Shown here one piece after another: positions 2,251 through 56,594 of a stretch of 64,000 nt of DNA (position 1 is the stretch's first letter; every line of letters begins with the position of its first letter). The notes under the pieces are model-generated. The model saw only the letters and a program-made list of their open reading frames with translations, was not told the origin of the DNA and ran no database searches. The stretch is from NCBI RefSeq assembly GCF_029962835.1, contig NC_080574.1, positions 20,124,001 to 20,188,000 of the forward strand, in the 5' to 3' direction. A program made the translations under genes and the position numbers. This DNA is from Magnolia sinica (lineage: Eukaryota; Streptophyta; Magnoliopsida; Magnoliales; Magnoliaceae).

Positions 2251-2720
2251 CTGAAGCATATGGAGTAAACTCTGTGGGGCCTGCAATGATGTATATATAT
2301 TATCCACGCCGTTCATCCGTTTTATCAGTTCATTTTAGGGCATGAGTCCAAAATCGGATTATATCTAAAGCTCAAGTGGACCATACCACAGGAAGTGGTG
2401 GAGATAATGATATCCACCGTTGAAACCTTCTTAGGGCCACAATGATGTTTATTTGTCATCCAGGATGTTTATAAGGTCACAAGGTCATGGATGTAGGGAA
2501 AGCAGAAATATCAGCTTGATCCAAAACTTCTGTGACCCTAAGAAGTTTTCAACAGTAGCATTCAATTCACGCTGTTTTCCAGTGGTGTGGTCTTCTTGAG
2601 CTTGTATGTGCTTCAATTTTTGAACCATGTCCTAAAATGAGCTTGTAAAACGGATGGACGGTGTAGATAAAATACATACGTCAAAGTGGGCCCCACATAG
2701 TTTACTCCATATGCTATAGC
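2251..2720. mobile_element. MITE-like TIR element of the quasi-palindromic family
   Basis: The left end reads GAAGCATATGGAGTAAACTC and the right end is its inverted counterpart (GTTTACTCCATATGCTATAG). Between them lie the family landmarks: a cognate of 'gatgtatgtgttttatccac', 'aagtggaccataccacagg' and 'aaaacggatggacggtgtag'. It is non-coding. Confidence 0.65.
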
Positions 2721-3230: not shown

Positions 3231-3750
3231 GGGGTGAGATTGCATCCTACCCCGCCAGTCTCCAACTGGGAACGGGCAGGAGCTTTGAGTGGCCACCGTG
3301 ATGCATGGGTTTTATCCACACCGTTCATCTATTTTTTCATATCATTTTAGTGCATAGTGCCAAAAATGAGTGAGATCCAAGACTCAAGTGGACCGCACCA
3401 CAGCAAGCAGCGATGATAATGATTCTCACCGTTGAAACTTTTCTAGGGCCCAACGTGATGTTTATTTTCCATCCAACCTAATCGTAAAGTTACGTGGACC
3501 TGGATGAAAATAAAACACAAATATCAGCTCCGTCCAAAACTTCTGTGGCTCCCAAAAAGTTTTCAAAGGTAAGAGTTTAATCCCCATTGTGTAGTCCACT
3601 TGGGCCTTGGATATGTCTCATTTTTGGGTCTATTCCCTGAAATGATACGAAAAAATAAATGGACGGTGTGAATAAGACTCATACATTACGGTGGACACTA
3701 AAAGCTCATGCCCGTTCCCAGTTGCGGGAATAGGACGCAATCCGCGTCCC
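3231..3750. mobile_element. MITE-like TIR element, about 520 bp
   Basis: The left end (GGGGTGAGATTGCATCCTAC, then AACTGGGAACGGGC) is inverted at the right end (GCCCGTTCCCAGTT, then AGGACGCAATCCGCGTCCC). The inner part is the quasi-palindromic family sequence. No target duplication was found. A truncated family copy follows at about 3765-4050. Confidence 0.66.
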
Positions 3751-7904: not shown

Positions 7905-8254
7905 TGACTGTGGAATCCACCAGGGTGTATGTGTCGTAAATCAATGCCATCCATCCATTTTAAAATATCATTTTGGATCATTTTTTCAAAAATGATGCAG
8001 ATCCACATCTTAGGAGGACCACACCACAGGAAACAATGGTTATCAACAGTTAAAATTTTCTTGTGAGTTGGAAAAGTTTTGGATCAAGTTGATATGTATT
8101 CGGTCCCTTCGTCCAGGCCTTTGTGACCTTATCAACTGGTTGATGGCAAATAAACATCCTGGTGCCTCACAAGAAGTTTTTAATGATACATGGTCGATCA
8201 CCATTGCTCGTGTGGTACAATCCGCCTAAGATTTGGATTTGTTTAATTTTTGGA
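7905..8254. mobile_element. Quasi-palindromic family copy split by E1 (left part)
   Basis: Family landmarks run up to GATTTGGATTTGTTTAATTT. The sequence then resumes after E1 at 16979 with CGCGCTAAAATGACTTGTCA, exactly where other copies read 'ctcatgctctaaaatgatct'. The element therefore serves as a pre-insertion site for E1. Positions 8246-8254 (ATTTTTGGA) are the left copy of the E1 target duplication. Confidence 0.75.
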
Positions 8255-9490
8255 GAGAAATTTACGACTGTACGACCCATTTAGGAGACTAAGCCCACCT
8301 CATTTTCCCCTGCGAGAATACGCCCCAGCTGTACGGATGGCTTGACAAAGGTCGAAAATGCCCCTGCTTGTTCCGTCAAGCGGATCGGTGGTGCTCAAAG
8401 ACGAACGCTGACACTCCTCGAACTCCGAGTTGCACGAACGGTTCAAAAGATATCAAAGTTACATGGCCCCACAGTTACGTATTTATTTTATCCACAACGT
8501 TCATCCATATTTCGAGATCATTTGGGAGCATTATCAAAAAAAAATATCATATCCAAAGATCAACTGGACCACACCACAAAGAGCAACAGGAAAATTGATT
8601 TTCACCGTTAAAAATTTTGTAGGGCCCACCATAACATTTATTTTCCATCCAATCTATTCATAAGGTCACAAAAGCCTGGATGAAGAGGGAAAAAAAAAAT
8701 TCATAATGATCCAATACTTCTGTGACCCCTAAAAGGCTTTCAATGTTAGACGTTCAATCCTCCACAGCTTTTTACAGTGTGGTCTACTTGATAGCTAGAT
8801 CTGTCTCATTTTTCATCTCAAGCCTTAATACGAGTTCGTCCAATATATGCACGGTTTGGATATAACACATACCTTATCATAGGACCCACAAAAAGCGGTA
8901 GGAATTACAAAAGTAAAAAATAAAATAGTAATAAATAAATAGGCCAGGAACTTATGGCTACGGTATTTTCTATAGCTACAGATTATAACCGTAGCCATAG
9001 TCGTAGCCCTTGCCACTTCGATATGTCCTTTTATATATATCGAAGGTCTTTCGATTAATCGAAAAAGGTCCAGAACTGTCCGGCGAGTTTGCTTCAAAAA
9101 TCCTGTAATTTTCGATATGTATCGAAGATGATATGACCAATAGCTACAGATTATAACCGTAGCCATAACTGTAGTTTGTGCTGGTTTATGAATTTTTTTT
9201 ATTTTTTTATTTTTTATTTTTTATTTTTTATTTTTTTACATAGATAATTTTATTCAACCTACAATTTTCTCTAATACATTTTTATATAAATATGTATATA
9301 TAAGCATATAAAAAAAAAAAAATTCTCTTTTTTTCATTTATTTCTTTATTCATTTAACAAGAATATCTCCTAAACCAAAATTAGTTACTTGACGTACCCT
9401 ATATGATTTTGGGGTAGGAGAAGCTACTTTAGCCAACCAACCTAGTTATTTTTCAATATTCCATTAGATCTATGGTCAAAAATCCATTTC
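8255..9490. repeat. E1 left terminal inverted repeat
   Basis: It pairs with 15733-16969. From the outside in: the terminal motif; a GC-richer part (CGAGAATACGCC, GTCGAAAATG, CTCCTCGAACTCCGAGTTG); a copy of the quasi-palindromic family (8455-8900); a block of TCGATTAATCGA-like palindromes flanked by two copies of AGCTACAGATTATAACCGTA (about 8979 and 9140); T-rich runs; and a ~90-bp stretch with GATTTTGGGGTAGGAG and CTACTTTAGCCAACCAAC. The last also occurs in the gypsy LTRs at 41584 and 47817. Confidence 0.85.
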
Positions 9491-10895
9491 ATTCACTTCG
9501 CGGTCAATTTCAATCAGTTCGTGGTCAATTTCATTCATTTCATTTACTTCACGATCAATTCCATGCATTTCACGGTCAATCCCAACGATTCCGTTTTGAT
9601 TCACGGTCATTTCCATGCATTTCACAGTCAATTCCCTTGACTTCACGGTCATTTGCATGCATTTCGCGGTCAAATCGCTTCAAACCATGATCATTCCCAT
9701 GCATTTCACGGTCATCTCAAACAATTCCGTGTTGATTCACGGTCGTTTTGAGGCATTTCGCGGTCAATTCCCTTCACTTCACGGTTATTTGCATGCATTT
9801 CGCGATCAAATCGCTTCAAACCATGATCATTCCCATGCATTTCGCGGTCATCCCAAACAATTCCGTGTTGATTCATGGTCATTTCGCGATCAATTCCCTT
9901 CACTTCACGGTCATTTGCATGCATTTCGCGGTCAAATCGCTTCAAACCATGATCATTCCCATGCATTTCGCGGTCATCCCAAACAATTCCGTGTTGATTC
10001 ACGGTCATTTCGAGGCATTTCGCGGTCAATTCCCTTCACTTCACGGTCATTTGCATGCATTTCGCGGTCAAATCGCTTCAAACCATGATCATTCCCATGC
10101 ATTTCACGGTCATCCCAAACAATTCCGTGTTGATTCATGGTCGTTTCGAGACATTTTGAGGTCAATTCCCTTCACTTCACGGTCATTTGCATGCATTTCG
10201 CGCTCAAATCGCTTCAAACCATGATCATTCCCATGCATTTCACGGTCATCCCAAACAATTCCGTGTTGATTCATGGTCGTTTCGAGGCATTTCGCGGTCA
10301 ATTCCCTTCACTTCACGGTCATTTGCATGCATTTCGCTGTCGAATCGCTTCAAAACATGATCATTCCCATGCATTTCACGGTCATCCCAAACAATTCCGT
10401 GTTGATTCACGGTCGTTTCGAGGCAATTCGCGGTCAATTCCCCTCACTTCACGGTCATTTGCATGCATTTCGCGGTCAAATCACTTCAAACCATGATCAT
10501 TCCCATGCATTTCGCAGTCATCCCAAACAATTCCGTGTTGATTCACGGTCGTTTCGAGGCATTTCGCTGTCAATTCCCTTCACTTCACGGTCATTTGCAT
10601 GCATTTCGCGGTCAAACGCTTCAAACCATGATCATTCCCATGCATTTCGCGGTCATCCCAAACAATTCCGTGTTGATTCACGGTCGTTTCGAGGCATTTC
10701 GCAGTCAATTCCCTTCACTTCACGATCATTTGCATGCATTTCGCGGTCAAATCGCTTCAAACCATGATCATTCCCATGCATTTCACGGTCATCCCAAACA
10801 ATTCTGTGTTGATTCACAGTCGTTTTGAGGCATTTCGCAGTCAATTCCCCTCACTTCAGGGTCATTTGCATGCATTTCGCGATCAATTCCCTTTC
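9485..10895. repeat. 136-bp tandem array A in E1
   Basis: About ten units of roughly 136 bp, marked by GTGTTGATTCACGGTC at about 9729, 9999, 10399, 10535, 10667 and between. The unit is made of smaller 20-22-bp modules that share TTCRCGGTCA (R = A or G), often ending TTGCATGCA or CCCATGCA. The first ~130 bp are irregular short modules. Frames on both strands are largely free of stops, but 136 is not a multiple of three, so each unit changes frame. I treat the predicted peptides as artefacts. Confidence 0.92.
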
Positions 10896-11150
10896 TTTTT
10901 GGAGGACTGATCACCTGCAACCGAGATACATATGCACATACAATTTTCTGAAGGCAAAAACTAGGCTGTGGCATACCACTAGTTGTAGGTGGTGATCGTT
11001 CCCCCTATTCTCTTAAGATTATAAAATAATTATACAGATATCGATATTGGTTTCAACGGCATCACCCTAGCAAACGCTTAGTCTGACCTGAGAGAATATA
11101 CACTGTGCACTCCTCTTTCAAGTATTTCAATCAATTACTATATCATTTCA
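10896..11150. other. Spacer between E1 arrays
   Basis: Unique-looking sequence between the 136-bp and 42-bp arrays. No frame or element was recognised. Confidence 0.5.
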
Positions 11151-11159
11151 CGCTCATTT

Positions 11160-11425
11160 CCATGCAATGTATGGTCAATTCCGACGATTCCACTTCACTT
11201 CACAGTCATTTCCATGCATTTCACCGTCAATTCCCTTCACTTCACGGTCATTTCCATGCATTTCACCGTCAATTCCCTTCACTTCACGGTCATTTCCATG
11301 CATTTCACCGTCAATTCCCTCCACTTCACGGACAATTCCATGCATTTCACGGTCAATTCCCTTCACTTCATGGACAATTCCATGCATTTCACGGTCAATT
11401 CCGACAATTCCGTGCATTCAAGTGT
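11160..11425. repeat. 42-bp tandem array in E1
   Basis: Repeats of about 42 bp built from two 21-bp halves, TTCACTTCACGGTCATTTCC and ATGCATTTCACCGTCAATTC. This is the same sequence vocabulary as the 136-bp array in a simpler arrangement. As 42 is a multiple of three, both strands give long repetitive frames, and I do not regard these as genes. Confidence 0.88.
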
Positions 11426-11429
11426 CCAA

Positions 11430-12465
11430 CATTTCCACACTTGAAAGAAATCGAAATTGTCTGTGATCGACTACCTCCTGTCATCCAATGCCTTTGTTGG
11501 TCAGATTGGGAACATTTCCTTGGTTGTGCTACCACACCATTTGTGGTTGCTAAATGTGACCCAAGTTCTTCGATCTGCTGATGATGGCCCACCTTGTCAA
11601 CTTCACTTCCTATACTAGGCAACGGTTGGGATCCTTTCCAATTTGATGTATTGAATGATGCACTCTCTCGCCCGTTGACATCTCTTGTACTCCCATCTGT
11701 ATGTAAACCGGGTTCCTTGCTAGGCAGATGGTAGGGAACCTCCGCCACTTGGAATCCTTCACCAGAAGATGATGACGGCTCTTTATTTATGAATCCATGG
11801 AGTAACATACTCTCCAGTGCATTACCATTTCCTTCTGCCCCTTCATGTAAATCAAGACCCTTGATTGGTGGATGTTGGCTTCCCTCCGCTTCAAATACTT
11901 TTTGAGATGATGATAGTGGTTCGTTCTCTATCGACCCATGGAATAACACACCCTCTAAATCACTACAATCTCCTTCTCTCCCTTCATGCAAATAAATATC
12001 CTCAATTTTAAGATGGTGGCCCACCTCCTTCACTTCAGATCCTCCACCAGATGATGAAACTGGCCCTCTCTCTATTAACTCATCAATTGATATATCCTCG
12101 CGTTTGTCATCATCTCATACCTCTTGTTCATGCAAATTAATCCTTTCGATCGGTAGATGGTGGTCCACTTCCACTTCAAATTCTTCACCTGATGATTTCT
12201 CTATTGATCGATGCAATATCACATCCTTCAGTCCATTATCATATCCTTCTTTGAGCACTTCGATCAATAAAGATTCATTACTAGATGATGATGGACAATC
12301 ATTCTCAATTGACCCATACAACAACATACCCTCAATTCCATCACCATCTCCTCCCCCTTCTTCATTTAAATCGAGTTTCTCGATCAGCGAATGGTGGCCC
12401 ACCTCCTCCACTTGAAACCCTTCCCCAGTCAATAAGATTCTGGTTGCTGGACCATTGAGGTACAT
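11430..12465 (-). pseudogene. Captured coding-like block with ~47-aa repeats
   Basis: One minus-strand frame stays open from 12465 to 11395 except for a single TGA at 12115-12117. The predicted protein is acidic and Ser-rich. It consists of about seven degenerate repeats spaced mostly 47-48 residues apart, each with a VGHHLPIE-like core, then LDLHEG, then LLHGSIENE and SSSS. One interval is 78 residues and probably lost a core. The TGA sits in GAG|GTATGA, which also resembles a splice donor, but coding-like sequence resumes at once. I do not recognise the family. Its position inside a transposon, the stop and its fusion to satellite suggest a captured gene fragment. No promoter was identified. 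Confidence 0.5.
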
Positions 12466-12870
12466 TTTCGATATATCGATATTTACTCGATATATACTTA
12501 CTTCGATATATCAAAATATCGGAGATATAATCGATAATTGCATTAAAAAAGCAGTTCGACGCTGGACATTTTCTGACAATTTTCGATATATCGAAATCTA
12601 GTCGATATATCGATACCCCGATATATCGACATCTACTCGATTATATCGATAATACAATTTAAAAAGCATTTTGTCGCTGGACAGTGTGTGACCATTTTCG
12701 ATCAATCGAATAATAGTCGATATATCGGTTGATTGTAAGGATGACTTACTACTATTATATCAACTAGATTTCGATATAATCGACAACTTACTCTACCATT
12801 AATCGATTAGGTTTCGATTATATCGAAGAGTTTCGATATATCGTGTTCTATTCGATATATCAAAGTGTAA
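12466..12870. repeat. TCGATATATCGA-rich palindromic block in E1
   Basis: Dense copies of TCGATATATCGA and variants (TCGATTATATCGA, TCGATCAATCGA). They include two similar ~105-bp stretches with GCTGGACATTTTCTGACAAT and GCTGGACAGTGTGTGACCAT. Shorter blocks of the same vocabulary lie in both E1 terminal repeats (about 9020-9130 and 16070-16200). Function unknown. Confidence 0.75.
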
Positions 12871-13029
12871 TTTTTCCATTTTTTTTCTAATGTGTTTTTT
12901 ATTTTATTTTTTATATATATATTTTTTTGTTTTGCTTTTTTAGGTTAGCTTGTTAGTACACACCCATGTCGGTACACACTCCATGTAATCCAAGCTGTGT
13001 TCATAGTGTGCTTCTTCTAGTCTCTTAAG
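12871..13029 (-). repeat. T-rich run and SINE-tail fragment
   Basis: A T-rich run is followed by TTAGCTTGTTAGTACACACC, the reverse complement of the family-1 SINE tail, at about 12940-12995. It is a 5'-truncated fragment only. Confidence 0.5.
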
Positions 13030-15490
13030 TTGCACGGTGATTTGCATGCATTTCGCGGTCGAATCGTTTCAAACCATGATCATTCCCAAGCATTTCACGG
13101 TCATCCCAAACAATTTCGTGTTGATTCACGGTCGTTTCGAGGCATTTCGCGGTCAATTCCCTTCACTTCAAGGTCATTTGCATGCATTTCGCGGTCAAAT
13201 CGCTTCAAACCATGATCATTCCCATGCATTTCGCGGTCATCCCAAACAATTCCATGTTGATTCACGGTCATTTCGAGGCATTTCGCGGTCAATTCCCTTC
13301 ACTTCACGGTCATTTGCATGCATTTCGCGGTCAAATCACTTCAAACCATGATCATTCCCATGCATTTCGCGGTCATCCCAAACAATTCCGTGTTGATTCA
13401 CGGTTGTTTTGAGGCATTTCGCGGTCAATTCCCTTCACTTCACGGTCATTTGCATGCATTTCGCAGTCAGATCGCTTCAAACCATGATCATTCTCATGCA
13501 TTTCATGGTCATCCCAAACAATTCCGTGTTGATTCACGGTCGTTTCGAGGCATTTCGCGGTCAATTCCCTTCACTTCACGGTCATTTGCATGCATTTCGC
13601 GGTCAAATCGCTTCAAACCATGATCATTCCCATGCATTTCACGGTCGTCCCAAACAATTCCGTGTTGATTCACGGTCGTTTCGAGGCATTTCGTGGTCAA
13701 TTCCCTTTACTTCACGGTCAGTTGCATGCATTTCGCGGTCAATTCGCTTCAAACCATGATCATTCCCATACATTTCACGTCGTCCCAAACAATTCCGTGT
13801 TGATTCATGGTCGTTTCGAGGCATTTCACAGTCAATTCCCTTCACTTCACGGTCAGTTGCATGCATTTTGCGGTCAATTCGCTTCAAACCATGATCATTC
13901 CCATACATTTCACGGTCGTCCCAAATAATTCCGTGTTGATTCACGGTCGTTTCGAGGCATTTCGCGGTTAATTCCCTTCCCTTCACGGTTAGTTGCATGC
14001 ATTTCGCGGTCAATTCGCTTCAAACCATGATCATTCCCATGCATTTCACGGTCGTCCCAAACAATTCCGTGTTGATTCACGGTCGTTTTGAGGCATTTCG
14101 CGGTCAATTCCCTTCACTCCACGGTCATTTGCATGCATTTCGCGGTCAAATCGCTTCAAGCCATGATCATTCCCATGCATTTCGCGGTCATCCCAAACAA
14201 TTCCGTGTTGATTCACGGTCGTTTCGAGGCATTTCGCGGTCAATTCCCTTCACTTCACGGTCATTTACATGCATTTCGCGGTCAAATCGCTTCAAACCAT
14301 GATCATTCCCATGCATTTCGCGGTCATCCCAAACAATTCCGTGTTGATTCACGGTCATTTCGAGGCATTTTGCGGTCAATTCCCTTCACTTCATGGTCAT
14401 TTGCATGCATTTCGCGGTCAAATCGCTTCAAACCATGATTATTCCCATGCATTTTACGGTCATCCCAAACAATTCTGTGTTGATTCACGGTTGTTTCGAG
14501 GCATTTCGCGGTCAATTCGCTTCACTTCACGGTCTATTGCATGTATTTCGCGGTCAATTCGCTTCAAACTATGATCATTCCCATGCATTTCGCGGTCATC
14601 CCAAACAATTCTGTGTTGATTCACGGTCGTTTCGAGGCATTTCGCGGTCAATTCGCTTCACTTCACGGTCATTTGCATGCATTTCGCGGTCAAATCGCTT
14701 CAAACCATGATCATTCCCATGCATTTCACGGTCATCCCAAACAATTCCGTGTTGATTCACGGTCGTTTCGAGGCATTTCACGGTCAATTCGCTTCACTTC
14801 ACGGTCAGTTGCATGCATTTCGCGGTCAATTCGCTTCAAACCATGATCATTCCCATGCACTTCACGGTCGTCCCAAACAATTCCGTGTTGATTCACGGTC
14901 GTTTCGAGGCATTTCGCGGTCAATTCGCTTCACTTCACGGTCATTTGCATGCATTTCGCGGTCAATTCGCTTCAAACCATGATCATTCCCATGCATTTCA
15001 CGGTCGTCCCAAACAATTCCGTGTTGATTCACGGTCGTTTCGAGGCATTTCGCGGTCAATTCCCTTCACTTCACGATCATTTGCATGCATTTCGCGGTCA
15101 AATCGCTTCAAACCATGATCATTCCCATGCATTTCACGGTCGTCCCAAACAATTCCATGTTGATTCACGGTCGTTTCAAGGCATTTCGCGGTCAATTCCC
15201 TTCACTTCACGGTCAGTTGCATGCATTTCGCGGTCAATTTGCTTCAAACCATGATCATTCCCATGCACTTCACGGTCGTCCCAAACAATTCCGTGTTGAT
15301 TCACGGTCGTTTCGAGGCATTTCACGGTCAATTCCCTTCACTTTACGGTCATTTGCATGCATTTCGCGGTCAATTCACTTCAAACCATGATCATTCCCAT
15401 GCACTTCACGGTCATCCCAAACAATTCCGTGTTGATTCACGGTCGTTTCGAGGCATTTCGCGGTCAATTCCCTTCACTTCACGGTCAGTT
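13030..15490. repeat. 136-bp tandem array B in E1
   Basis: About 18 units of the same 136-bp repeat, in the same orientation as array A. The marker GTGTTGATTCACGGTC recurs every ~136 bp, for example at 13391, 13527, 13663, 14206, 14342, 14750, 14886, 15022 and 15294. Units are highly similar, so amplification or homogenisation is probably recent. Variants such as CGGTCAAATCGC against CGGTCAATTCGC are grouped along the array, which suggests local multi-unit duplication. Confidence 0.93.
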
Positions 15491-15506
15491 GCATGACCGT
15501 GAAGTG
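15475..15506. repeat. Perfect hairpin at array inversion point
   Basis: CACTTCACGGTCA (15475-15487), a 6-base loop GTTGCA, then TGACCGTGAAGTG (15494-15506). This is the exact switch from plus- to minus-oriented satellite. Confidence 0.9.
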
Positions 15507-15745
15507 CATGAGAATGATCATGAATTGATGCGAATTGAACGTGAAATGCATGCAAATGACCGTGAAGTGAAGGGAATTGACCGTGAAATGCCTCGAAATG
15601 ACCGTGAATCAACACGGAATAGTTTGGGATGACCGTGAAATGCATGGAATTGTCCGTGAAGTGGAGGGAATTGACGGTGAAATGCATGGAAATGACCACG
15701 AAGTGAATGCATTGACCGCAAAGTGAATGAAATGGATTTTCGACC
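15494..15745. repeat. Inverted short array C in E1
   Basis: The same modules in reverse orientation (TGACCGTGAAGTG, GACCGTGAATCAACACGGAA), running into the right terminal repeat. It mirrors the start of array A. Confidence 0.85.
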
Positions 15746-16969
15746 ATCGACCTGATGGAATCTTGGAAAATAACTAGGTTAGTTGGCTAAAGTATCTTCT
15801 CCTACCCCAAAATCATATAGGGTACATCAAGTAACTAATTTTGGTTTAGAAGATATTCTTGTTAAATGAATAGAGAAATAAATGAAAACAAGAGAGAATT
15901 TTTTTATTAATATGCTTATATATACATATTTATATAAATACGTATTAGAGAAAATTGTAGGTAAAATAAATTTCTCCATGTAAAAAATAAAAAATAAAAA
16001 AATAAAAAAATTTGCATAGACTTTTATGGACTGCAGTTATGGCTACGGCTATAATCTGTAGCTATATCTTCGATACATATCGAATACACTTCGATTAATC
16101 GAAAATTGTAGGATTTTTTATGCAAAGTTGCTGAACAGTTTTGGACCTTTTTCGATTAATCGAAAGACATTCGATATATCAAAGTACATATCGAAAGACC
16201 TTCCATGCATAGTAGAGGACATATTGAAAGAGCATTGGCTGCTGTTATCTATATGGTTATAATCCGTAACCATAGATACCAGGCTTTTTTCTTTTCCCTG
16301 TTTTAATCCCCACCGCCTTTGTGGGTCCTTTTACGAGGTATGTGTTATATCCAAACCGTCTATCTATCTGGCGAACTCATACTAACGCTTGGGAAGAAAA
16401 ATAAAATAGATTTAGCTATCAAGTGGACCACACTGTAAAAGGCAGTGGAAGATTGAATGTCTACCATTGAAACCCTTTTAGGGGTCCCAGAAGTTTTGGA
16501 TCATTACAAAATTTGTTTTTGCTCTTCATCCAGGTCTTTGTGACATTATGAATGGATTGATGGAAAATAAATGTTATGGTGGGCCCTACAAAAGTTTCCA
16601 CGGTGAAACTCAATTTTCTGCTGCTCTTTGTGGTGTGGTCCAGTTGCTCTTTGGATATGATTTTTTTTGCTTGGATAATGCTCCAAAATGATCTCGAAAT
16701 ATGGATGAACGTTGTGGATATAATAAATACGTAACTGTGGGGCCCATGTAACTTTGATATCTTTTGAACCGTTCGTACAACTCGGAGTTCGAGGAGTGTC
16801 AGCGCTCGTCTTCGAGCACCACCTATCGGCTTGAAGGAACAAGCAGGGGGCCATTTTCGACCTTTGGCAAGCCATCCGTACAGCTGAGGCGTATTCTCGC
16901 AAGGGGAAATAGGGTAGGCTTGGTCTCGTAAATAGGGCCATAAATGGGTCGTACAGTCGCAAATTTTCC
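15733..16969. repeat. E1 right terminal inverted repeat
   Basis: Reverse complement of 8255-9490 with scattered differences and almost equal length (1237 against 1236 bp). It ends GTACAGTCGCAAATTTTCC, immediately followed by the 9-bp duplication ATTTTTGGA at 16970-16978. Confidence 0.85.
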
Positions 16970-16978
16970 ATTTTTGGA

Positions 16979-23455: not shown

Positions 23456-24621
23456 AAGCGGATTGGCTGGTGTACCGCACACCAGCTATATGGCTGATTT
23501 GTTGACGTCACCAAATTCCGTGGGTCCCATCATGAGGTATGTGTTATATCCCAACCGTCCTTTCATTTGGAGAGCTCGTACTAAGTCATGAACCGAAAAA
23601 TAAGACAGATCCAATGATCAAGTGGACCACACTGCAAAAAGGTGTGAGGGATTGAATGTCTACCATTGAAACCTTTCGTGTCACGGAAGTTTTGGATAGA
23701 TACGATATTTGTTTTTACTCTTCATCCAGGTCTGTGTGACCTTATGAACATATTGGATGGAATATAAACTCTATGCTAGACTCTACGAATGTTTTAACGG
23801 TGAGAATCATTGTCCCCGCTGCTATTTCTGGTGTGGTCCACTTAAGATTTGGATATGAATAATTTTTGGTATCATGCTCTTAAATTATCTCAAAAAATGG
23901 ATGAACGGTGTTGATATAATAAATACATCATTTTGGGGGACGTGTAACTTTGATATACTTTGAACGGGAACGGATTGGCTACTCCCCCTGACACCAGCCA
24001 TTGGCCGATGGTCGGTGCTTTGTGGGATCCACCATGATGTATGTGTGTCATCCATGCCGTCCATCTATTTTTATATATCATTTTATGATATTATAAAAAA
24101 AAATTAAATATATCTCAATCTCAAGCAGACCACATTGCAGGAAACAGTGTTGAATGAATTTTGGCCATTAAAAACGTTTTGGGGGGCCATAAAAGTTTTG
24201 GATCAAGCTGATATTTATTTTTTCCCTTCATCTGGGTCTTTATGACCAAATCAAAAGATTGGATGTCAAATAAACAGTACAGTGGGCCTTAGGAGGATTT
24301 TAATTGTGAATATCTATTCATTATTGTTGTCCTGTGGTGTGGCCTACCTAAGATTTATATCCCTATCATTTTTTGTATCAAGCTCTAAAATGATCTGTAA
24401 AAATGGATTAACGGAATGGATGAAACACATACATCATGGTGGGGCCCACATAGCACCGACCATCAGCCACCGGACTGGTGTCAGGGGGAGTAGCCAATGC
24501 GTTACCACTTTGAACTGTTCGTACAACTCAGAGCTCGAGGAGCTGCAACGATCGTCTTCGCACGACACGTACTCACATCAGCCATATTGCTGCTGTGCGG
24601 TACACCAGCCAATCCGCTTAC
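23456..24621. mobile_element. Mutator-like element with 11-bp target duplication, host of a nested MITE
   Basis: The inverted ends read AAGCGGATTGGCTGGTGTAC on the left and, reverse-complemented, GTAAGCGGATTGGCTGGTGT on the right. A perfect 11-bp direct repeat, GATGCCTACGG, flanks it at 23445-23455 and 24622-24632. The inner part includes a quasi-palindromic copy and a GC-richer arm (TTCGTACAACTCAGAGCTCG) also found in the E1 terminal repeats. A second element (23966-24506) sits inside it. It is non-coding. Confidence 0.85.
23966..24506. mobile_element. Nested Mutator-like MITE, 541 bp, perfect 9-bp target duplication
   Basis: The ends are GGGAACGGATTGGCTACTCC and, reverse-complemented, GGTAACGCATTGGCTACTCC, both continuing CCCTGACACCAG. 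A perfect 9-bp duplication, ACTTTGAAC, lies at 23957-23965 and 24507-24515. Removing the element and one repeat restores the host sequence 'tatactttgaactgttcgta', as in the uninterrupted relative at about 25848. Non-coding. Confidence 0.9.
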
Positions 24622-25803: not shown

Positions 25804-26367
25804 GGAAGAGGATTGGCTGGTGTACCACACACCAGCAAGCTCCGAGTTTGTACGAACGGTTCAAAGGAGATCAAAGTTACATGGGCCACACAATGATGTA
25901 TTTATCATATCTACACCGTTCATCCATTTGGCGAGATCATTTTACACCCTGATCCCAAAAATGAGTAATTTCAGAGGCTTAAGTGAACCACACCACAAAT
26001 AGAAGTGGGGACAATGATTTTCACCGTTACAAAATTAGTAGCCCCACCATAACGTTTACTTTCCATCTAATTTATTCACAAGGTCACACAGACCTGGATG
26101 AAGAGAAAAAACAAATATCATATCGATCCAAAATTTCTGTGACTCCATAAGGGTTTCAATGGCATACATTCAATCCTCTATTGCCTTTTACAGTGTGGTC
26201 CACTTGAATTTTGGATCTTTCTTATTTTTTGGCTCAAGTATAAATACGAGCTCACAAAGTGTACGGACGGTTTGGATATAATTCATACCTCATGATGGGA
26301 CCCACAGAACTTGGTGACGTCAACACAGCCACATCGGTGGTGTGCGGTACACCAGCCAATCCACTTC
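25804..26367. mobile_element. Mutator-like MITE, 564 bp, 10-bp target duplication
   Basis: The ends are GGAAGAGGATTGGCTGGTGT and, reverse-complemented, GAAGTGGATTGGCTGGTGTA, followed by CCGCACACCA-like sequence. A perfect 10-bp duplication, CGTGTTTATG, flanks it at 25794-25803 and 26368-26377. It is an uninterrupted relative of the element at 23456-24621. Non-coding. Confidence 0.86.
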
Positions 26368-28573: not shown

Positions 28574-29499
28574 TAGGGGTGTAAATCGAGTCGAACCGAG
28601 TCAAGCTACCATCAGCTCGACTCGGCTCGGCCACTGGTTGACCTCAGCTTGAACTTGGCTCAGCTCGATCCTCGAGCCTGACTGGCCAGCTCAGCTCAGT
28701 TCAGTCAGTAGCTCGAGCCAACTCAAGCCGAGTTCGAGCCAAGATCAAGCCAAGTTCACCATTGAGGCATTTCCACAAACACCTGGACTGCACCTTCAAA
28801 ATCCCTCTTGGCAAAGTAGCGTGCGCTTTGCCGATGCCTTCCCAGCAGGAGAGTAGGCCTAGCCTACTTGCGTGCCACGGTAAGAGATAAGGGTGGGTGC
28901 TATTGCCAAATTTGAAGGAAGCGATGTTGGGGTTCTTTATGGAGACATCAGCCTTAAGTGTCATGTTGATGGATAGATTTGTAGCAGTTTCTATGTTGAA
29001 TTTCATCCTATTGATGATAATGGAATTCAATGTCATATCAGGGTCTCTTACTCTGAAAACAGTTAGAGCCAACACCAAGATTACTATGGCAAGAATTAGT
29101 GTTGTAGCTGCGCAACAACCACAACAGAGTATGTAACACTGCTTTCAGAGCTTTTTAGGTGATGGTCGCTTCTTCGCATCCTCCTCGTCGCTATTCATTC
29201 GATTGAAAGCTGGTGCCAGCGGTCTTACTTGATCCATTTTATCAAACACTTGGTGAGCAACATCAATGGCAAAGTAACCGAGTCACTGAACTGGTTCAAT
29301 CCGAGTTCGATTTGAGCTGGATTCGATCCGAGTCGAGTCGAGTCGAGCTAGGGCCAGCTCAAACTCGGCTCGAACTCATTTTCGAGCTCAAAAAATCTGC
29401 TCGACTCGGCTCGAACTCCGCTTCTAACCGGTCAAATTGAGCTTTTCCAAGTTGAGTCAAGCACGCTAACCGAGCTAGCTCAGTTCGTGTACACCCCTA
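28574..29499. mobile_element. hAT-type non-autonomous element with captured gene fragment
   Basis: The ends are TAGGGGTGTA and TACACCCCTA, a 10-bp inverted repeat. The flanks are a perfect 8-bp duplication, TTCACTAC, at 28566-28573 and 29500-29507, typical of the hAT superfamily. Subterminal regions are rich in GAGCT/CTCGA and AGTCGAGTCGAGTCGAGCT-like repeats. The core between about 28810 and 29215 is a LEA2/NHL gene fragment. A relative without this insert lies at 51937-52516. No transposase is encoded. Confidence 0.88.
28815..29198 (-). pseudogene. LEA2/NDR1-HIN1-like (NHL) gene fragment inside the hAT element
   Basis: The fragment starts at an ATG (29198-29196) giving MNSDEEDAKKRPSPKKL, then meets a TGA. 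The same frame continues as CCGCCAATTLILAIVILVL, a cysteine-led membrane segment, then TVFRVRDPDMTLNSI and SIKNPNIASFKFGNS. This is the usual layout of plant LEA2/NHL proteins, whose N-terminal anchor precedes the LEA2 domain. After GNST the match moves to another frame (SYRGTQVG, stop, then AGKASAKRTL), so there is at least one frameshift and one more stop. The C-terminal half of the domain is missing. It is probably non-functional cargo. Confidence 0.85.
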
Positions 29500-34223: not shown

Positions 34224-35082
34224 TTTTTGTTGGAGAAATTTACGCCTGTGGACCCCACCTTTTAACCATTGGATATTCTTGAAGCAATACAAACTTAACA
34301 TACACACTTAGACCTCCTCGTACGGACGACAAATTCCAGGACGAAAATACCCCTCCTTTTCAAGGAAACGGATTGGGTACTCCTCCTGCCACCCGCCAAT
34401 GGCGGATCGTCGGTGGTCTGTGGGCCCCACCATGATGTATTCTTTTCATCCATGCCGTCCATATATTTTTCCAGATCATTTTATGGTATGAGACCAAAAA
34501 TGAGGTATATCCAAATCTTAAGTGTACCACATTACAAGAAACAGTGTTAAATGAGCGTCAACCATTAGAAACTCAAGTGGAGCCCACTGTGATGTTTGTG
34601 AGAAATCCTCCCCGTCTAAGTTCATTCATAGGGTCACAAAGACCTGGATGAAGAGGAAAAAAAAAATTCATAATGATCCAAAACTTCTGTAACCCCTAAA
34701 AGGGTTTCAATGGTAGACGTTCAATTCCCCACTGCCTTTTACAGTGTGGTCCACTTGATAGTTAGATCTATCTTATTTTTCGTCTCAAGCCTTAATATGA
34801 GCTCGTCAAATAAATGGACGGTTTGGATATAACACAAACCTCATGATGGGACCCACAAAAGCAACATAGAAAAAAAAAATCTACAGACTGCTGCCGTGGC
34901 AGTCTAGCAGATTTTTTATTTTTTATTTTTTTTAATTACAGGGAGAACTTTTTCTCCCTTAAATTTTTCTCTAATACATAATTATGTAAATATGTATATA
35001 TAAGTATATAAAAATATTTTCCTACCTTTTAATTCATTTTTTTTGTCTATGTATTTAACAAGCATATCTCTTAAACTAGAAT

Positions 35083-35203
35083 AATTTTTTTTTCTTTACA
35101 CACACCCCCACACACTCACACTAGTGGAATTTCACCACCTATGGATACTCGAATGCTTGACCAGGTGTTGAAACTCCTAATAGTCTACCACCCGAGCGAG
35201 GCA
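35083..35203 (-). mobile_element. SINE (family 2) in the E2 left terminal repeat
   Basis: The sequence reads, on the minus strand, CTCGGGTGGTAGACTATTAG, then TGGTCAAGCATTCGAGTATC, then GTGGTGAAATTCCACTAGTG and a TG-rich tail. A mirror copy sits at 37971-38105 in the right terminal repeat. Confidence 0.7.
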
Positions 35204-35800
35204 AACATGAAAATGAGCGGAGCAAGCGTGAAAATGAGTGGGGCAAGCATGAAAATAAGTGGGGCAAGCTAGAAAAACAGCGGGGTAAACTGAAGTATGA
35301 GCGGGGCAAACTAAAACAATAGCAGGGCAAACCAGAAAAACAGTGGAGCAAACTGAAGTATGAGTAGGGCAAACTAGAAAAACAGTGGGGTAAACTGAAA
35401 TATGAGCAGGGCAAACTAAAAAATGAGCGGGGAAACATGAAAATGAGAGGGAGAAACTAGAAAATCAGCGAGAGAAACATAAAAATCAGCGGGGGAAACT
35501 AGAAAATCAGCAGGGGAAACATGAAAATGAGCAGGGCAAACTAGAAAATCAGCAGGGAAAACATGAAAATGAGTGGGGCAAATATGAAAAATGAGCGGGG
35601 CAATTATGAAAATGAGCGGAGCAAACTGAAATATGAGCGGGGCGAACAAGAAAAACGGCGAGGCAAACTGAAATATGAGCGGGGCAAACTGAAATATGAG
35701 GGGGTAAACTAGAAAAACAGCGGGGCAAACTGAAATATGAGTGGGGCAAACAAGAAAAATAGTGGGGCAAACTGAAATATGAGCGGGGCAAACTATCTGA
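35200..35800. repeat. 21-bp tandem array, left (E2)
   Basis: About 28 units of 21 bp with three main variants: GGGGCAAACATGAAAATGAGC-like, GGGGCAAACTAGAAAAACAGC-like and GGGGCAAACTGAAATATGAGC-like (each written here without its last base being essential). Variants alternate in blocks. A period of seven codons keeps frames open, which explains the repetitive predicted peptides. Confidence 0.88.
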
Positions 35801-36889
35801 TTTTGTTGATGAATTTGGAACTTTCAACATCAATTTCTTTGAGAGTAATGATCTCTTACAACCGGTTGTTGGATAGCTTATAACACAGTCCATCTAACCT
35901 GTAAACCTATCATCTACCTGGGACATGATCATGAGGGTCATGTTAAAGAAGGGACTCACCTTGAAGAATCATTTGGTGAAAAAACCAGGCCATTGTGCAT
36001 GAAAAAAACAGAGAGTTTAAATCAGAGATGTTGATGGTGTGCTTCCATGTACTCATTTGGCCCACCTGATAAATGAGCAGGGCTGATTTTTGTGCCAGTT
36101 GACCTACATGGTGGGTCACATTTCTTCATGGTTCAAATATCCTATACATGACATATTGGCACATGTGATTAGTTGTATCTTAAGCTAAGCAACGATGGAT
36201 TGTATGTGATCATTACTTTTCCTACAAATAAGAACCACCCATTTGGTGGGTCCCCATCGAATGGAGGGACCATCTAAGAAGTGCAATCTTGGGCAATTCC
36301 CATCCAAAAAGAGGCCCACAATTTAGAAGGTCAGGATTTATGTGCATATACACTAAATGTAGGGTGGACTTGTATTCTAAGTATGATCTACAATACTCCT
36401 CTTTTTTAATTCTTACTTTAATTGAGGGATTTTTTTTTTCTTCCTTCCTTTTTGCAAGCAGAGCTAATGCTCTTTGGGCTTCTATCATTGCTGTTGGGTC
36501 ATTGGATGATTTGGGTAGCTAAGATATGTATTAAATCTTCATCATTTAGCAATCACTTTTATCCGTGTGTGAAGGAAAGCTACAAAGGTGGGGTGATGAA
36601 TATGAAACATTTGCTGGTTGATGATATCTATCATTTCATTCACTTCGCGGTCAATTTTAATCAGGTTGCGGTCAATTTCAATCAAATTTAGATGGCTTGG
36701 ATTGTCGTGCAGCTATGCCATGTACGGTGGAAGAATTCTCTTCATTTTTTAGTCAGTGTTACACAAAAAAAGAAGAGAAAATGGGCTTTCTTGTTATACA
36801 ATGTCAGCATGGCGATTCATATGCCGATGTAGCAATTATATATGACACAGGCAAGTAGCAAAATTGTGTTTACAAAAATGACGATTCAT
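35801..36889. other. E2 central spacer
   Basis: The only large non-inverted part of E2. A short plus frame right after the array (about 35796-35876, DFVDEFGTFNINFFESNDLL then stop) looks protein-like, but I cannot assign it. At 36633-36690 the spacer carries ATTTCATTCACTTCGCGGTC, the words that open the E1 array at 9485. No complete gene seen. Confidence 0.5.
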
Positions 36890-37465
36890 ATACTTGACCC
36901 GCTCATTTTCATGTTTGCCCCGCTCATTTTCTAGTTTGCCCTGCTCATATTTTAGTTTACCCCGCTGATTTTCTAGTTTGCCGCGCTCATTTTCATGTTT
37001 ACCCCGCTCATTTTCATGATTGCCCCGCTCATTTTTCATGCTTGCCCCGCTCATTTTCATATTTCCCCCACTCATTTTCTAATTTGCCCCGCTCATTTTC
37101 ATGTTTTCCCTACTCATTTTCTAGTTTTTTCCGCTCATTTTTATGTTTCCCCCGCTGATTTTCTAGTTTCTCTCGCTCATTTTCATGTTTTCCTCGCTCA
37201 TTTTCATGTTTCCCCCCTGATTTTCTAATTTGTCCCGCTGTTTTTCTAGTTTGCTCCGCTCATACTTCAATTTGCCCCACTCATATTTCAGTTTGCCCCA
37301 CTGTTTTTCTAGTTTGCCCAACTAATTTTCATGCTTGCCCCGCTCATATTTCAGTTTGCCCCGCTGATTTTCATGCTTGCCCCGCTCATCTTTATGCTTG
37401 CCCCGCTAATTTTCATGTTTGCCCTGCTCATTTTCATGCTTGCCTCACTAATTTTTATGGGTGAT
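36890..37465. repeat. 21-bp tandem array, right and inverted (E2)
   Basis: Reverse-oriented units (GCTCATTTTCATGTTTGCCC, GCTGATTTTCTAGTTTGCCC, GCTCATATTTCAGTTTGCCC) matching the left array 35200-35800. Confidence 0.87.
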
Positions 37466-37970
37466 TTCGTCATGTATAAACCATATAGTTTCCTTGTTTG
37501 GATGAAACTTTTATTTTGGAGTTTTTGGGGTCTGAATCTTTCTTTCTGCTCCCAATTAAAATAGGGTTTGAGAACACAAAAAATGACGTGTTCACAGCTT
37601 TTACTCGTAATCTTCATATGGTTAACTCCACTTGATAATCTCATAATCACTTTCATGACAAACTACATAAATAATTGTGTTCTTTAATTTTCTTCATTGC
37701 TTTCACATTTTCAATCAACCGTATAATTGTGAGTTCATAATGGTTTCCTACCTATTCAAATAAACATAAAAATCAAAGTCAACAGTAAAACTTGGAGATG
37801 AACGATATGATCGTTGACAAGATAATATGAATAGTACTCTCGGGTCTTGAGTTTATTCAACTGTGACGCATGGTTTGGTGATCTAGGCCAGTCATCTAAT
37901 GGGTTGCACCATGAGCTAAATTTTTTCCAAAATTTTCCCTGCAAGTAAATCATTCTAGTTTAGGATTCTT

Positions 37971-38105
37971 ACTCTTGCTCGGGTGGTAGACTCTTAGGAG
38001 TTTCAACACCCGGTCAAGCGTTCAAGTATCCATACGTGGTGAAATTCTACTAGTGTGAGTGCATGGGCGTGTGTGTGCGTGTGTAAAAAAAAGAAAAAAA
38101 AAAAA
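37971..38105 (+). mobile_element. SINE (family 2) in the E2 right terminal repeat
   Basis: Shows GCTCGGGTGGTAGACTCTTA (A-box region), CCGGTCAAGCGTTCAAGTAT (B-box region), GTGGTGAAATTCTACTAGTG and a TG-rich stretch with an A-run tail. It is the mirror image of 35083-35203. Confidence 0.72.
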
Positions 38106-38255
38106 CATTCTAATTTAAGAGATATGCTTGTTAAACAAATAGACAAAGAAATGAATTAAAAGATAGAAAAATATTTTTATATACTTATATATACATATTT
38201 ACATAATTATGCATTAGAAAAAAATGTAAGAGAGAAAAAGTTCTCTACGTAAAAA

Positions 38256-38287
<32 letters not shown>

Positions 38288-38818
38288 CTGCCAGACACCG
38301 CGGCACTGCCGCCGATCTGTGCTCTTTTTTTTTGCTAGGTTGCTTTCGTGGGTCCCATCACGAGGTCTGTGTTATATCCAAACCGTCCATCTATTTGGTG
38401 AGCTTATATTAAGGCTTGAGACAAAAAATAAGATAGATCTGACTATCAAGTGGACCACACTGTAAAAGGCAGTGGAAAATTGAACGTCTACCATTGAAAC
38501 CCTTTTAGGGGTTACAGAAGTTTTGGATCATTATGAAATTTGTTTTTCCTCTTCATCCTGGTCTTTGTGACCCTATGAATGAACTTAGACGGGGAGGATT
38601 TCTCACAAACATCACAGTGGGCCCCACCTGAGTTCCCATCGCCGGACCGTCCGTCAGCGCTCGTCTCTGCACGCCAGCATGAGGAAGGCAGGGGTATTTT
38701 CGTCCTCAAATTCGGTGTCCGTACGAAGAGGTCTAAGTGCGTATGTTAAATTTGTATTGCTTCGTAAATACCACTAGATAAAAGGTGGGTCCACAGTCGT
38801 AAATTTCTCTTTTTGTTG

Positions 38819-56093: not shown

Positions 56094-56594
56094 ATTGGGT
56101 GGTGACCCCAACACCACCGATATACCTGGTGACCGGACTCTGTGGAGCCCACCGTGATGTATGTGTTTTATCCATGCCGTCCATCCGTTTTTCTAGTTCA
56201 TTTTAGGACATGATCCCAATTTTGAAACATATCCAAATATCAAGTGGACCACACCACAGGAAACAGTGGGGATTGAACTCCTACCAATGAAAATTTCTTG
56301 AGGCGCAGAAATTTGGATCAAGCTGGTATTTCTGTTTTCTCTTCATCCAGGTCTCTGTGACGTTATGAAGAGGTTGGATGGCAAATAAACATCACGGTGG
56401 ACCCTAAGAAGGTTTGAGGGTGGACGTAATTATCCCCACTGTTTCCGATGATGTGGTCCACTTGACCTTTGGATATGCTTCAATTTTGGGCTCTTGCCGT
56501 TAAACGAGCTGGAAAAGGGGATGGATGGCGTGGATAAAACACATACATCACGGTGGGCTGCACAGGTGGTGTTGGGGTCACCACCCAATCCGCT
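56094..56594. mobile_element. MITE-like TIR element, complete family copy
   Basis: Left AGCGGATTGGGTGGTGACCC and CAACACCACC are exactly inverted at the right (GGTGGTGTTGGGGTCACCAC, CCAATCCGCT). The interior is one of the best-preserved copies of the quasi-palindromic sequence, with GATGTATGTGTTTTATCCAT at the left and AAAACACATACATCACGG at the right. No target duplication visible. Confidence 0.75.

What the first reader, a model, noticed from the sequence alone, without database searches (positions are those of the whole stretch)
8246..16978. E1: a Mutator-like foldback that carries ~4 kb of minisatellite between 1.24-kb terminal repeats
The ends, near-equal terminal repeats and perfect 9-bp duplication (ATTTTTGGA) are directly visible, and the empty site can be reconstructed in the interrupted MITE. 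Such a large tandem-repeat cargo in a Mutator-like element is unusual. With E2 it suggests a family whose members each amplify their own array.
Basis: partly seen in the sequence, partly recalled or inferred. Interest (0 to 1): 0.88.

Follow-up and report, generated by a model that had tools for sequence, protein, structure and literature searches.

The report
Mutator-like transposon carrying 21-bp repeat arrays
This stretch of a magnolia chromosome holds a jumping gene packed with a short repeat of fixed 21-base spacing, and its larger relatives carry that kind of repeat beside a gene for a protein resembling one that other plant jumping genes use to switch off the host's silencing, so the repeat may be that protein's landing pad.

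Summary
E1 (8255-16969) is a Mutator-like foldback with a perfect 9-bp duplication, ~1.24-kb arms and ~4.3 kb of minisatellite, inserted in a MITE. It belongs to a large family: 16 of 24 sampled end pairs on scaffold 1 have matching 9-10 bp duplications, and all 16 carry arrays of a 21-bp unit. Two lineages exist, E1-type (unit core TGACCGTGA) and E2-type (AGCGGGGCAAAC); end type and array type agree wherever the ends are clear. Large members encode a MURA transposase and, facing it, DUF1985 and Ulp1 parts, the make-up of the VANC/KIU anti-silencing genes of VANDAL transposons. Arrays avoid coding sequence (0 of 437 units; ~98 expected). Each lineage has its own DUF1985 protein (54-58% identical between lineages).

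Best reading: the arrays are binding-site fields for a lineage-specific VANC-like anti-silencing protein, and E1 is a copy without these genes, rich in such sites. Binding and hypomethylation are inferred, not shown. The assembly matches Magnolia sinica, a magnoliid, outside the eudicots where (recalled) this system is said to have arisen.

The parts
8246..8254 (+). left copy of the 9-bp target-site duplication ATTTTTGGA
16970..16978 (+). right copy of the target-site duplication
8255..16969 (.). E1, foldback MULE without transposase or DUF1985 gene, 8,715 bp, E1-type lineage
8255..9496 (+). left arm (terminal inverted repeat outside the array)
15703..16969 (-). right arm; like the left arm it matches the LEFT arm of relative L026
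9497..10875 (-). array block 1, 45 units of the 21-bp repeat in 136-bp higher-order copies
11147..11408 (-). array block 2, 11 units
13031..15498 (-). array block 3, 80 units in 136-bp higher-order copies
15504..15702 (+). array block 4 in the right arm, 8 units, opposite orientation
11398..12510 (-). open-frame remnant, two pieces of 239 and 131 aa with repeated ~40-aa segments by eye; no Pfam match for the 239-aa piece
12464..12727 (.). other tandem repeat (~115 bp), related to a 124-bp repeat in L026 in the other orientation
7909..8254 (.). left part of the MITE interrupted by E1 (the right part reaches to about 17039)
34233..38809 (.). E2, foldback MULE of the E2-type lineage, TSD TTTTTGTTG at 34224-34232 and 38810-38818
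35195..35802 (+). E2 left array, 27 units AGCGGGGCAAAC-type
36904..37449 (-). E2 right array, 24 units, inverted

Best explanation
E1 is a member, itself without transposase or DUF1985 gene, of a large Mutator-like (MULE) family whose big members encode a MURA transposase and DUF1985 + Ulp1 parts of the VANC/KIU kind. The 21-bp arrays are fields of binding sites, at 21-bp spacing and confined to non-coding DNA, for that lineage's own VANC-like protein. Binding would strip silencing marks from copies with the matching array, so that E1 can be exposed and mobilised in trans by larger relatives. Array units multiply and are homogenised by unequal exchange or slippage, seen in E1 as the 136-bp higher-order expansion. 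E1's palindromic shape arose when its right arm was replaced by an inverted left-type arm. SHOWN: element, duplications, arrays, period, gene content, array avoidance of coding, agreement of end and array type, two lineages of transposase and DUF1985 protein, left-type similarity of both E1 arms. INFERRED: protein-array binding, hypomethylation, trans-mobilisation, mode of array growth and of arm replacement.
For: TSDs: 16 of 26 pairs (24 sampled plus E1 and E2) with <=1 mismatch at strict 9 bp against 0 of 650 swapped pairings; L009 and L026 add perfect 10-bp ones found with looser rules. Genes: Pfam finds PF03108, PF10551, SWIM, PF20167 and PF09331 in L045 and PF03108, PF10551 and Peptidase_C48 in L043; by tblastn both have all these parts and L013x has DUF1985 + C48 without transposase. 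Units: 2,241 E2-type and 343 E1-type in 26 elements (6 and 9 in shuffles); by far the commonest spacing is 21 (1,797 E2-type pairs, next 42 bp with 88; 186 E1-type pairs). Arrays avoid coding: 0 of 437 units, ~98 expected, in the four elements with genes. Of the first 12 unpaired end hits, 9 have arm homology and all 9 carry arrays of the type matching the end; the other 3 have neither. Genome-wide: 150 of 819 DUF1985 candidates scored, all 150 over cut-off; 115 matches to the E1-type transposase; comparing the two lists by eye I found 8 transposase/DUF1985 pairs facing each other within 21 kb. DUF1985 parts beside E1-type transposases form their own group (82-91% identical within, 54-58% to E2-type), while the transposase mid-part is 65%. 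dN/dS below 1: MURA 0.49, DUF1985 0.44-0.57, C48 0.26-0.36. Precedent: VANC proteins carry DUF1985 and bind short motifs in tandem repeats of non-coding VANDAL DNA (PMC5735166, passages and section 9).
Against: No binding, methylation, small-RNA or expression data. The CpG-decay test is inconclusive: CpG/CHH transition ratio 1.26 in arms and 1.22-1.31 in arrays, against about 1.8-2.4 in other window repeats, but few independent pairs, each counted both ways, and no difference between arrays and arms. VANDALs are described as having degenerate TIRs (PMC10398659, passage); here TIRs are kept or enlarged. Array type and end type would agree by common descent alone. L026 itself keeps only a broken Ulp1 fragment and no DUF1985 was found in it; the four E1-type DUF1985 loci were assigned to the lineage by a neighbouring transposase 78-85% identical to L026's, and their arrays were not read. 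8 of 24 sampled pairs lack a matching duplication. The sampled large members carry stop codons.
Confidence: 0.5

Rival explanations
1. The 21-bp arrays are subterminal binding sites of the transposase itself; more sites raise transposition, so arrays are selected in cis, and no anti-silencing protein is involved.
For: Precedent in Galileo, whose TIR repeats contain extra transposase binding sites, and the same suggestion for Tetris (PMC4079207, passages). End type, array type and transposase lineage agree. In most E2-type elements the outermost arrays start ~0.8-2 kb from the ends and are inverted.
Against: Arrays are not only subterminal: they lie throughout the elements, between genes and in both orientations. 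The outer TIR already gives a conserved transposase target. It does not explain why a DUF1985-Ulp1 gene is kept.
Confidence: 0.2
2. The arrays are passive minisatellite that grew by slippage and unequal exchange inside foldback arms, with no function.
For: Minisatellite growth inside foldback TIRs is known (Tetris, Tm1); E1's 136-bp copies show late homogenisation.
Against: The same unit and 21-bp period persist across the sampled elements, with a better conserved core (E2-type columns 1-12 versus 13-21) and 0 of 437 units in coding; within-array homogenisation is weak, 4.8 versus 5.6 differences of 21.
Confidence: 0.2
3. The inverted arrays mainly form hairpin transcripts that feed small-RNA silencing, so E1 is a silencing trap for its family rather than a beneficiary.
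For: E1 and E2 are near-palindromes and long TIRs of MULEs are often a source of siRNA (passage in PMC10398659).
Against: Does not explain the conserved 21-bp period or core. No small-RNA data. It is compatible with the best explanation rather than exclusive.
Confidence: 0.07

Closest known systems
VANDAL / KIU (Kaonashi) MULEs of Arabidopsis with VANC anti-silencing proteins
   Same: MULE transposase; a further gene with DUF1985 (and Ulp1 in the KIU form); short motif in tandem repeats in non-coding parts; motif and protein diverge together between related families (passages of PMC5735166, PMC10398659, PMC13317346).
   Different: Here TIRs are present (196 bp at 94% in L043, 136 bp at 98% in L045; longer in foldback copies), arrays have a 21-bp period and fill 14-51% of the 18 elements measured, and the host is a magnoliid. 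Anti-silencing is not shown here.
FARE foldback elements of Arabidopsis (Windsor and Waddell 2000; paper not held; description recalled)
   Same: Recalled: long modular inverted ends, 9-bp TSDs, small copies made of the ends and large copies with three proteins including a transposase. [quoted passage not shown]
   Different: Array unit and lineage split described here were not compared with FARE sequence.
Tm1 Mutator/foldback family of root-knot nematodes
   Same: 9-bp TSDs, TIRs built of a variable number of short tandem units, MULE-domain transposase (passages of PMC3169594).
   Different: Phantom-type transposase and 14-bp unit; no DUF1985/Ulp1 gene in the passages seen.
Tetris and Galileo foldbacks of Drosophila
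   Same: Tandem repeats inside TIRs that can expand (passages of PMC4079207).
   Different: Galileo is P-type (passage in PMC3169594); Tetris unit is ~220 bp and no autonomous Tetris was found.

Membership tests
Mutator superfamily (MULE) | 9-bp (8-11) target-site duplication | tested here: met
   16 of 26 pairs at strict 9 bp with <=1 mismatch against 0 of 650 swapped pairings, plus two perfect 10-bp ones; 8 of 26 without
Mutator superfamily (MULE) | MURA/MULE transposase between the same ends | tested here: met
   PF03108, PF10551 and SWIM in L045; PF03108 and PF10551 in L043; in L026 PF03108 over and PF10551 below its cut-off. E1 and E2 themselves have none
Foldback element | long inverted arms, often with tandem repeats | tested here: met
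   E1 82% over 1,468 columns; L009 86% over 2,061; E2 87% over 662 plus arrays. Not met by all members: L013x and L048 show only ~127-134 bp of terminal inverted repeat in that test
VANDAL/KIU MULE | gene with DUF1985 (and Ulp1 in the KIU form) in the autonomous element | tested here: met
   L045 DUF1985 and L043 C48 over Pfam cut-off; L043, L045 and L013x have both by tblastn. That the parts form one gene is inferred. Absent from E1 and E2
VANDAL/KIU MULE | short motif in tandem repeats in non-coding DNA, differing between related families | tested here: met
   0 of 437 units in coding; two unit types
VANDAL/KIU MULE | absent or degenerate TIRs | tested here: not met
   outer TIR 196 bp at 94% (L043) and 136 bp at 98% (L045). 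A passage of PMC6446971 notes that some members of the VANDAL clade do contain TIRs
VANDAL/KIU MULE | transposase falls in the VANDAL clade | not tested
VANC-type anti-silencing system | protein binds the motif and causes loss of methylation | not testable with these tools
   needs EMSA/DAP-seq and bisulfite data; CpG-decay proxy inconclusive

The most novel reading that the evidence does not exclude
A magnoliid carries a working sequence-specific anti-silencing system of the VANC/KIU type in TIR-bearing, often foldback transposons, with at least two diverged protein/array pairs of the same 21-bp (two helical turns) period. This would put the origin of such systems before eudicots split from magnoliids, show that they do not require loss of TIRs, and make array-rich foldbacks without these genes, such as E1, a large reservoir of target sites.
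Probability: 0.42. Interest if true: 0.76.

Novelty: new variant of a known kind. Interest (0 to 1): 0.62.

Why it matters
It turns an odd 'transposon with minisatellite cargo' into a testable prediction: the repeats are landing pads of an anti-silencing protein. Two lineages in one genome, each with its own repeat and its own DUF1985 protein, form a natural specificity-swap experiment outside Arabidopsis, and the TIR-bearing, inverted form bears on the idea that such systems go with TIR loss. One search for anti-silencing + transposon + magnoliids found no paper in the held library; the key 2022 EMBO J paper on eudicots is not held, and most subscription journals are not searched, so novelty in print is not established.

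Tried and rejected
Independent arrays per element: rejected for the 21-bp unit, kept for E1's 136-bp copies. CpG retention as proof of hypomethylation: inconclusive. Common origin of the two units: the CATG variant of the E2-type unit aligns 14 of 21 with the E1-type unit (148 of 20,000 shuffles reach it), but the main E2-type consensus gives only 11 of 21 (6,278 of 20,000 reach it); two variants tried, so suggestive at best. E1's own open frame as a transposase or DUF1985 remnant: its 239-aa part has no Pfam match and the element is not hit by those proteins. Nearest-neighbour pairing of ends: L012, L015, L016, L018, L022, L028, L041 and L048 show no TSD and may be mispaired, rearranged or chance ends; L013 gained a perfect TSD when paired with a further right end. 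RNA families: none at gathering score in the window. PDB: the C48 part weakly matches Ulp1-type proteases (best E 0.0036). A paper search on Magnolia/Mutator/foldback/minisatellite/MULE found 13 papers with three or more terms; the 8 listed showed nothing on this family by title and abstract start.
Full report
WHAT IS THERE. E1 occupies 8255-16969, flanked by ATTTTTGGA on both sides. Its ends form an inverted repeat, 82% over 1,468 columns. Four array blocks (9497-10875, 11147-11408, 13031-15498, 15504-15702) hold 144 copies of a 21-bp unit; the first three run one way and the last, inside the right arm, the other way. Tandem Repeats Finder sees the two large blocks as 136-bp units. The joined flanks match other copies of a ~410-bp MITE across the junction. 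E2 has a perfect 9-bp duplication and two inverted arrays of a different 21-bp unit.

WHOSE GENOME. The scaffold sampled has length 141,926,363, identical to the 'maximum scaffold length' of the Magnolia sinica assembly (PMC10999834, passages). Total size is close but not identical (1,838,573,281 bases in 127 contigs here; 1,839,595,854 bases in 130 scaffolds there). I infer Magnolia sinica, a magnoliid. That paper's tree puts magnolias beside eudicots + Ceratophyllales with monocots outside, and says the placement is disputed (abstract and passages).

THE FAMILY. The end 12-mer occurs 1,255 times against 286 for the reversed control. From the first 100 places listed, all on scaffold 1, I took all 24 convergent neighbouring pairs closer than 20 kb; two wider pairs were not fetched. 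One (L013) was re-paired with a further right end. With E1 and E2 that makes 26. 16 of 26 have a 9-bp duplication with at most one mismatch; 0 of 650 swapped pairings do. Two more (L009, L026) have a perfect 10-bp one, found with looser rules that have no swapped control of their own. So 16 of the 24 sampled pairs, and 18 of 26 with E1 and E2, have matching duplications; all 18 carry arrays. Of the 8 pairs without one, 6 carry arrays and the two shortest (L015, L016) do not. As a check on selection I read the first 12 unpaired end hits: 9 have arm homology beyond the 12-mer and all 9 have arrays (4-23 units) within 1.6 kb; 3 have neither, close to the chance share expected from the control.

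TWO LINEAGES. E2-type: 2,241 units, consensus AGCGGGGCAAACTAGAAAATC; E1-type: 343 units, ATGCATGGAAATGACCGTGAA; shuffled elements give 6 and 9. A given element carries essentially one type: E1, L026 and L048 have 0 E2-type units; E2-type elements have at most 6 E1-like hits each, four of which form one short run in L023. By end score, end type agrees with array type except for near ties (L011 left, 8 against 7.8 the wrong way; E2 right, 8 against 8.3 the right way), and array-less L015 has discordant ends. The commonest spacing is exactly 21 bp (1,797 E2-type and 186 E1-type neighbours). E1-type spacings of 31 and 52 bp, and the 136-bp higher-order period, are close to 3, 5 and 13 half-periods of 10.5 bp, but they are copies of one arrangement and count as few events.

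ARRAYS AS INHERITED, NOT INDIVIDUAL. The E2-type consensus is identical in 14 of 21 elements and differs at 1-2 positions in 7; the first 12 positions are the same in all 21. Mean difference is 4.8 of 21 within an array and 5.6 between elements, so homogenisation is modest. E1's 136-bp copies are 89% identical within the left block, 94% within the right block and 91% between blocks, against 75% to L026 and 81.5% within L026: the 136-bp form is shared by E1, L026 and L048 and was re-amplified or homogenised in E1.

E1'S FOLDBACK LOOKS DERIVED. In 150-bp windows both E1 arms match the left arm of L026 (left arm 0.82-0.93, right arm 0.72-0.93), and neither matches its right arm beyond the first window. 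L048's left arm matches E1 over its first ~600 bp and its right arm over the first ~150 bp only. So E1 looks like a left-left composite; the route is inferred.

GENES. In L045 (perfect TSD) three open frames carry a MURA transposase (PF03108, PF10551, SWIM) broken by two stops; further in and on the other strand lie a PF20167 protein, a DUF1985 part, a coil-rich middle part and an Ulp1 (C48) part. L043 (TSD with one mismatch) has the same order, with four stops in the transposase stretch. The DUF1985, middle and Ulp1 parts lie in order on one strand and I read them as one gene with introns (inferred). L013x has DUF1985, middle and Ulp1 parts without the transposase. L026 has an E1-type transposase and a broken Ulp1 fragment 54% identical to that of L043 over 70 residues. 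L045's Ulp1 part keeps the H, D, Q and C that I recall as catalytic, with one stop further on; L043 has L at the H position. dN/dS among L043, L045 and L013x: MURA 0.49, DUF1985 0.44-0.57, C48 0.26-0.36; L026-L045 MURA mid-part 0.14 with dS 1.6; the PF20167 genes were too diverged for an estimate. Of 437 units in L043, L045, L013x and L026, 0 overlap these coding parts (introns not counted as coding); about 98 are expected.

GENOME-WIDE. DUF1985: 150 of 819 candidates were scored, all 150 over the cut-off. Of the six scored on scaffold 1, four lie between convergent family ends: two in L043 and L045, two in the wider pairs not fetched. E1-type transposase: 115 matches, a few with open frames of 711-829 aa without stops (114 of 1,539 candidates scored). 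Comparing the two lists by eye, at least eight transposase/DUF1985 pairs face each other within 21 kb (C16:39.33/39.31, C16:21.25/21.27, C15:10.42/10.44, C6:86.73/86.71, C5:28.47/28.48, C12:64.23/64.25, C16:32.41/32.40, C5:61.98/61.97 Mb); by my arithmetic fewer than one is expected by chance. I fetched the DUF1985 part of the four whose neighbouring transposases are most like L026's (78-85% identical). They are 82-91% identical to each other over 142-199 residues and 54-58% to the E2-type proteins, which are 79-88% among themselves. The transposase mid-part differs less between lineages (65%, L026 against L045).

INTERPRETATION. In Arabidopsis, VANC proteins carry DUF1985, bind short motifs in tandem repeats in non-coding VANDAL DNA, induce loss of methylation in matching copies, and are less conserved than the transposase (PMC5735166, abstract, passages and section 9; PMC10398659, abstract and passages). 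KIU genes are the Ulp1-bearing form, and the review dates the Ulp1 capture to the monocot/eudicot separation (PMC13317346, passages). From memory only, the 2022 EMBO J paper (title seen in reference lists; text not held) places the origin in eudicots and names sequence, density and helical periodicity of motifs as determinants. The Magnolia family shows the same parts: arrays outside coding DNA, a 21-bp (two helical turns) period, lineage-specific repeat and lineage-specific DUF1985 protein, and copies without these genes whose unit density is higher (E1 16.5 per kb, the highest of the 26; L043 7.8, L045 4.4). I therefore prefer 'target field of an anti-silencing protein' over transposase sites or passive minisatellite, at about one half.

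LIMITS. No functional data. The element sample is from one scaffold plus the window, and E1-type members are few (E1, L026, L048 plus ends L051 and L058). CpG test inconclusive. Whether the arrays also occur outside the family was not tested: the genome-wide array scan did not complete.

Noticed in passing
window 2255-2715, 3293-3694, 23520-23965, 25859-26306, 56137-56557 and others: An abundant ~410-450 bp MITE family, at least some copies self-complementary; a sequence roughly 60-78% like it also forms part of the E1 arms (E1 positions ~190-640) and of E2's, and E1 itself is inserted in one copy.
   Followed up: partly
E1 arm ~8405-8855 against L041, L014, L018: In arm windows from ~150 to 600, E1 is about as similar (0.84-0.93) to one arm of these E2-type elements as to E1-type L026, although the transposases of the two lineages differ by dS 1.6; suggests exchange of arm segments between lineages.
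   Followed up: partly
L043:5976-7154 and L045:7672-8994 (minus): PF20167-like proteins in the same slot of two elements are only ~34% identical although their transposases are ~88% identical: very fast evolution or replacement.
   Followed up: no
window 11398-12510 (minus): E1 interior carries a ~370-aa open-frame remnant with ~40-aa repeats by eye and a zinc-knuckle-like end, no Pfam match for the 239-aa part scanned and no tblastn match in the other sampled elements.
   Followed up: partly
C14:68533954/68552384, C77:10044/36226, C9:84407300/84436807: Transposase hits 52-53% identical to L026, with open frames of 378-809 aa, face DUF1985 hits within ~18-30 kb; may be a third lineage with its own array type.
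   Followed up: no
window 28704-29144 (minus): Open frame that by eye resembles an NDR1/HIN1-like (LEA_2) plant gene; recalled resemblance only.
   Followed up: no
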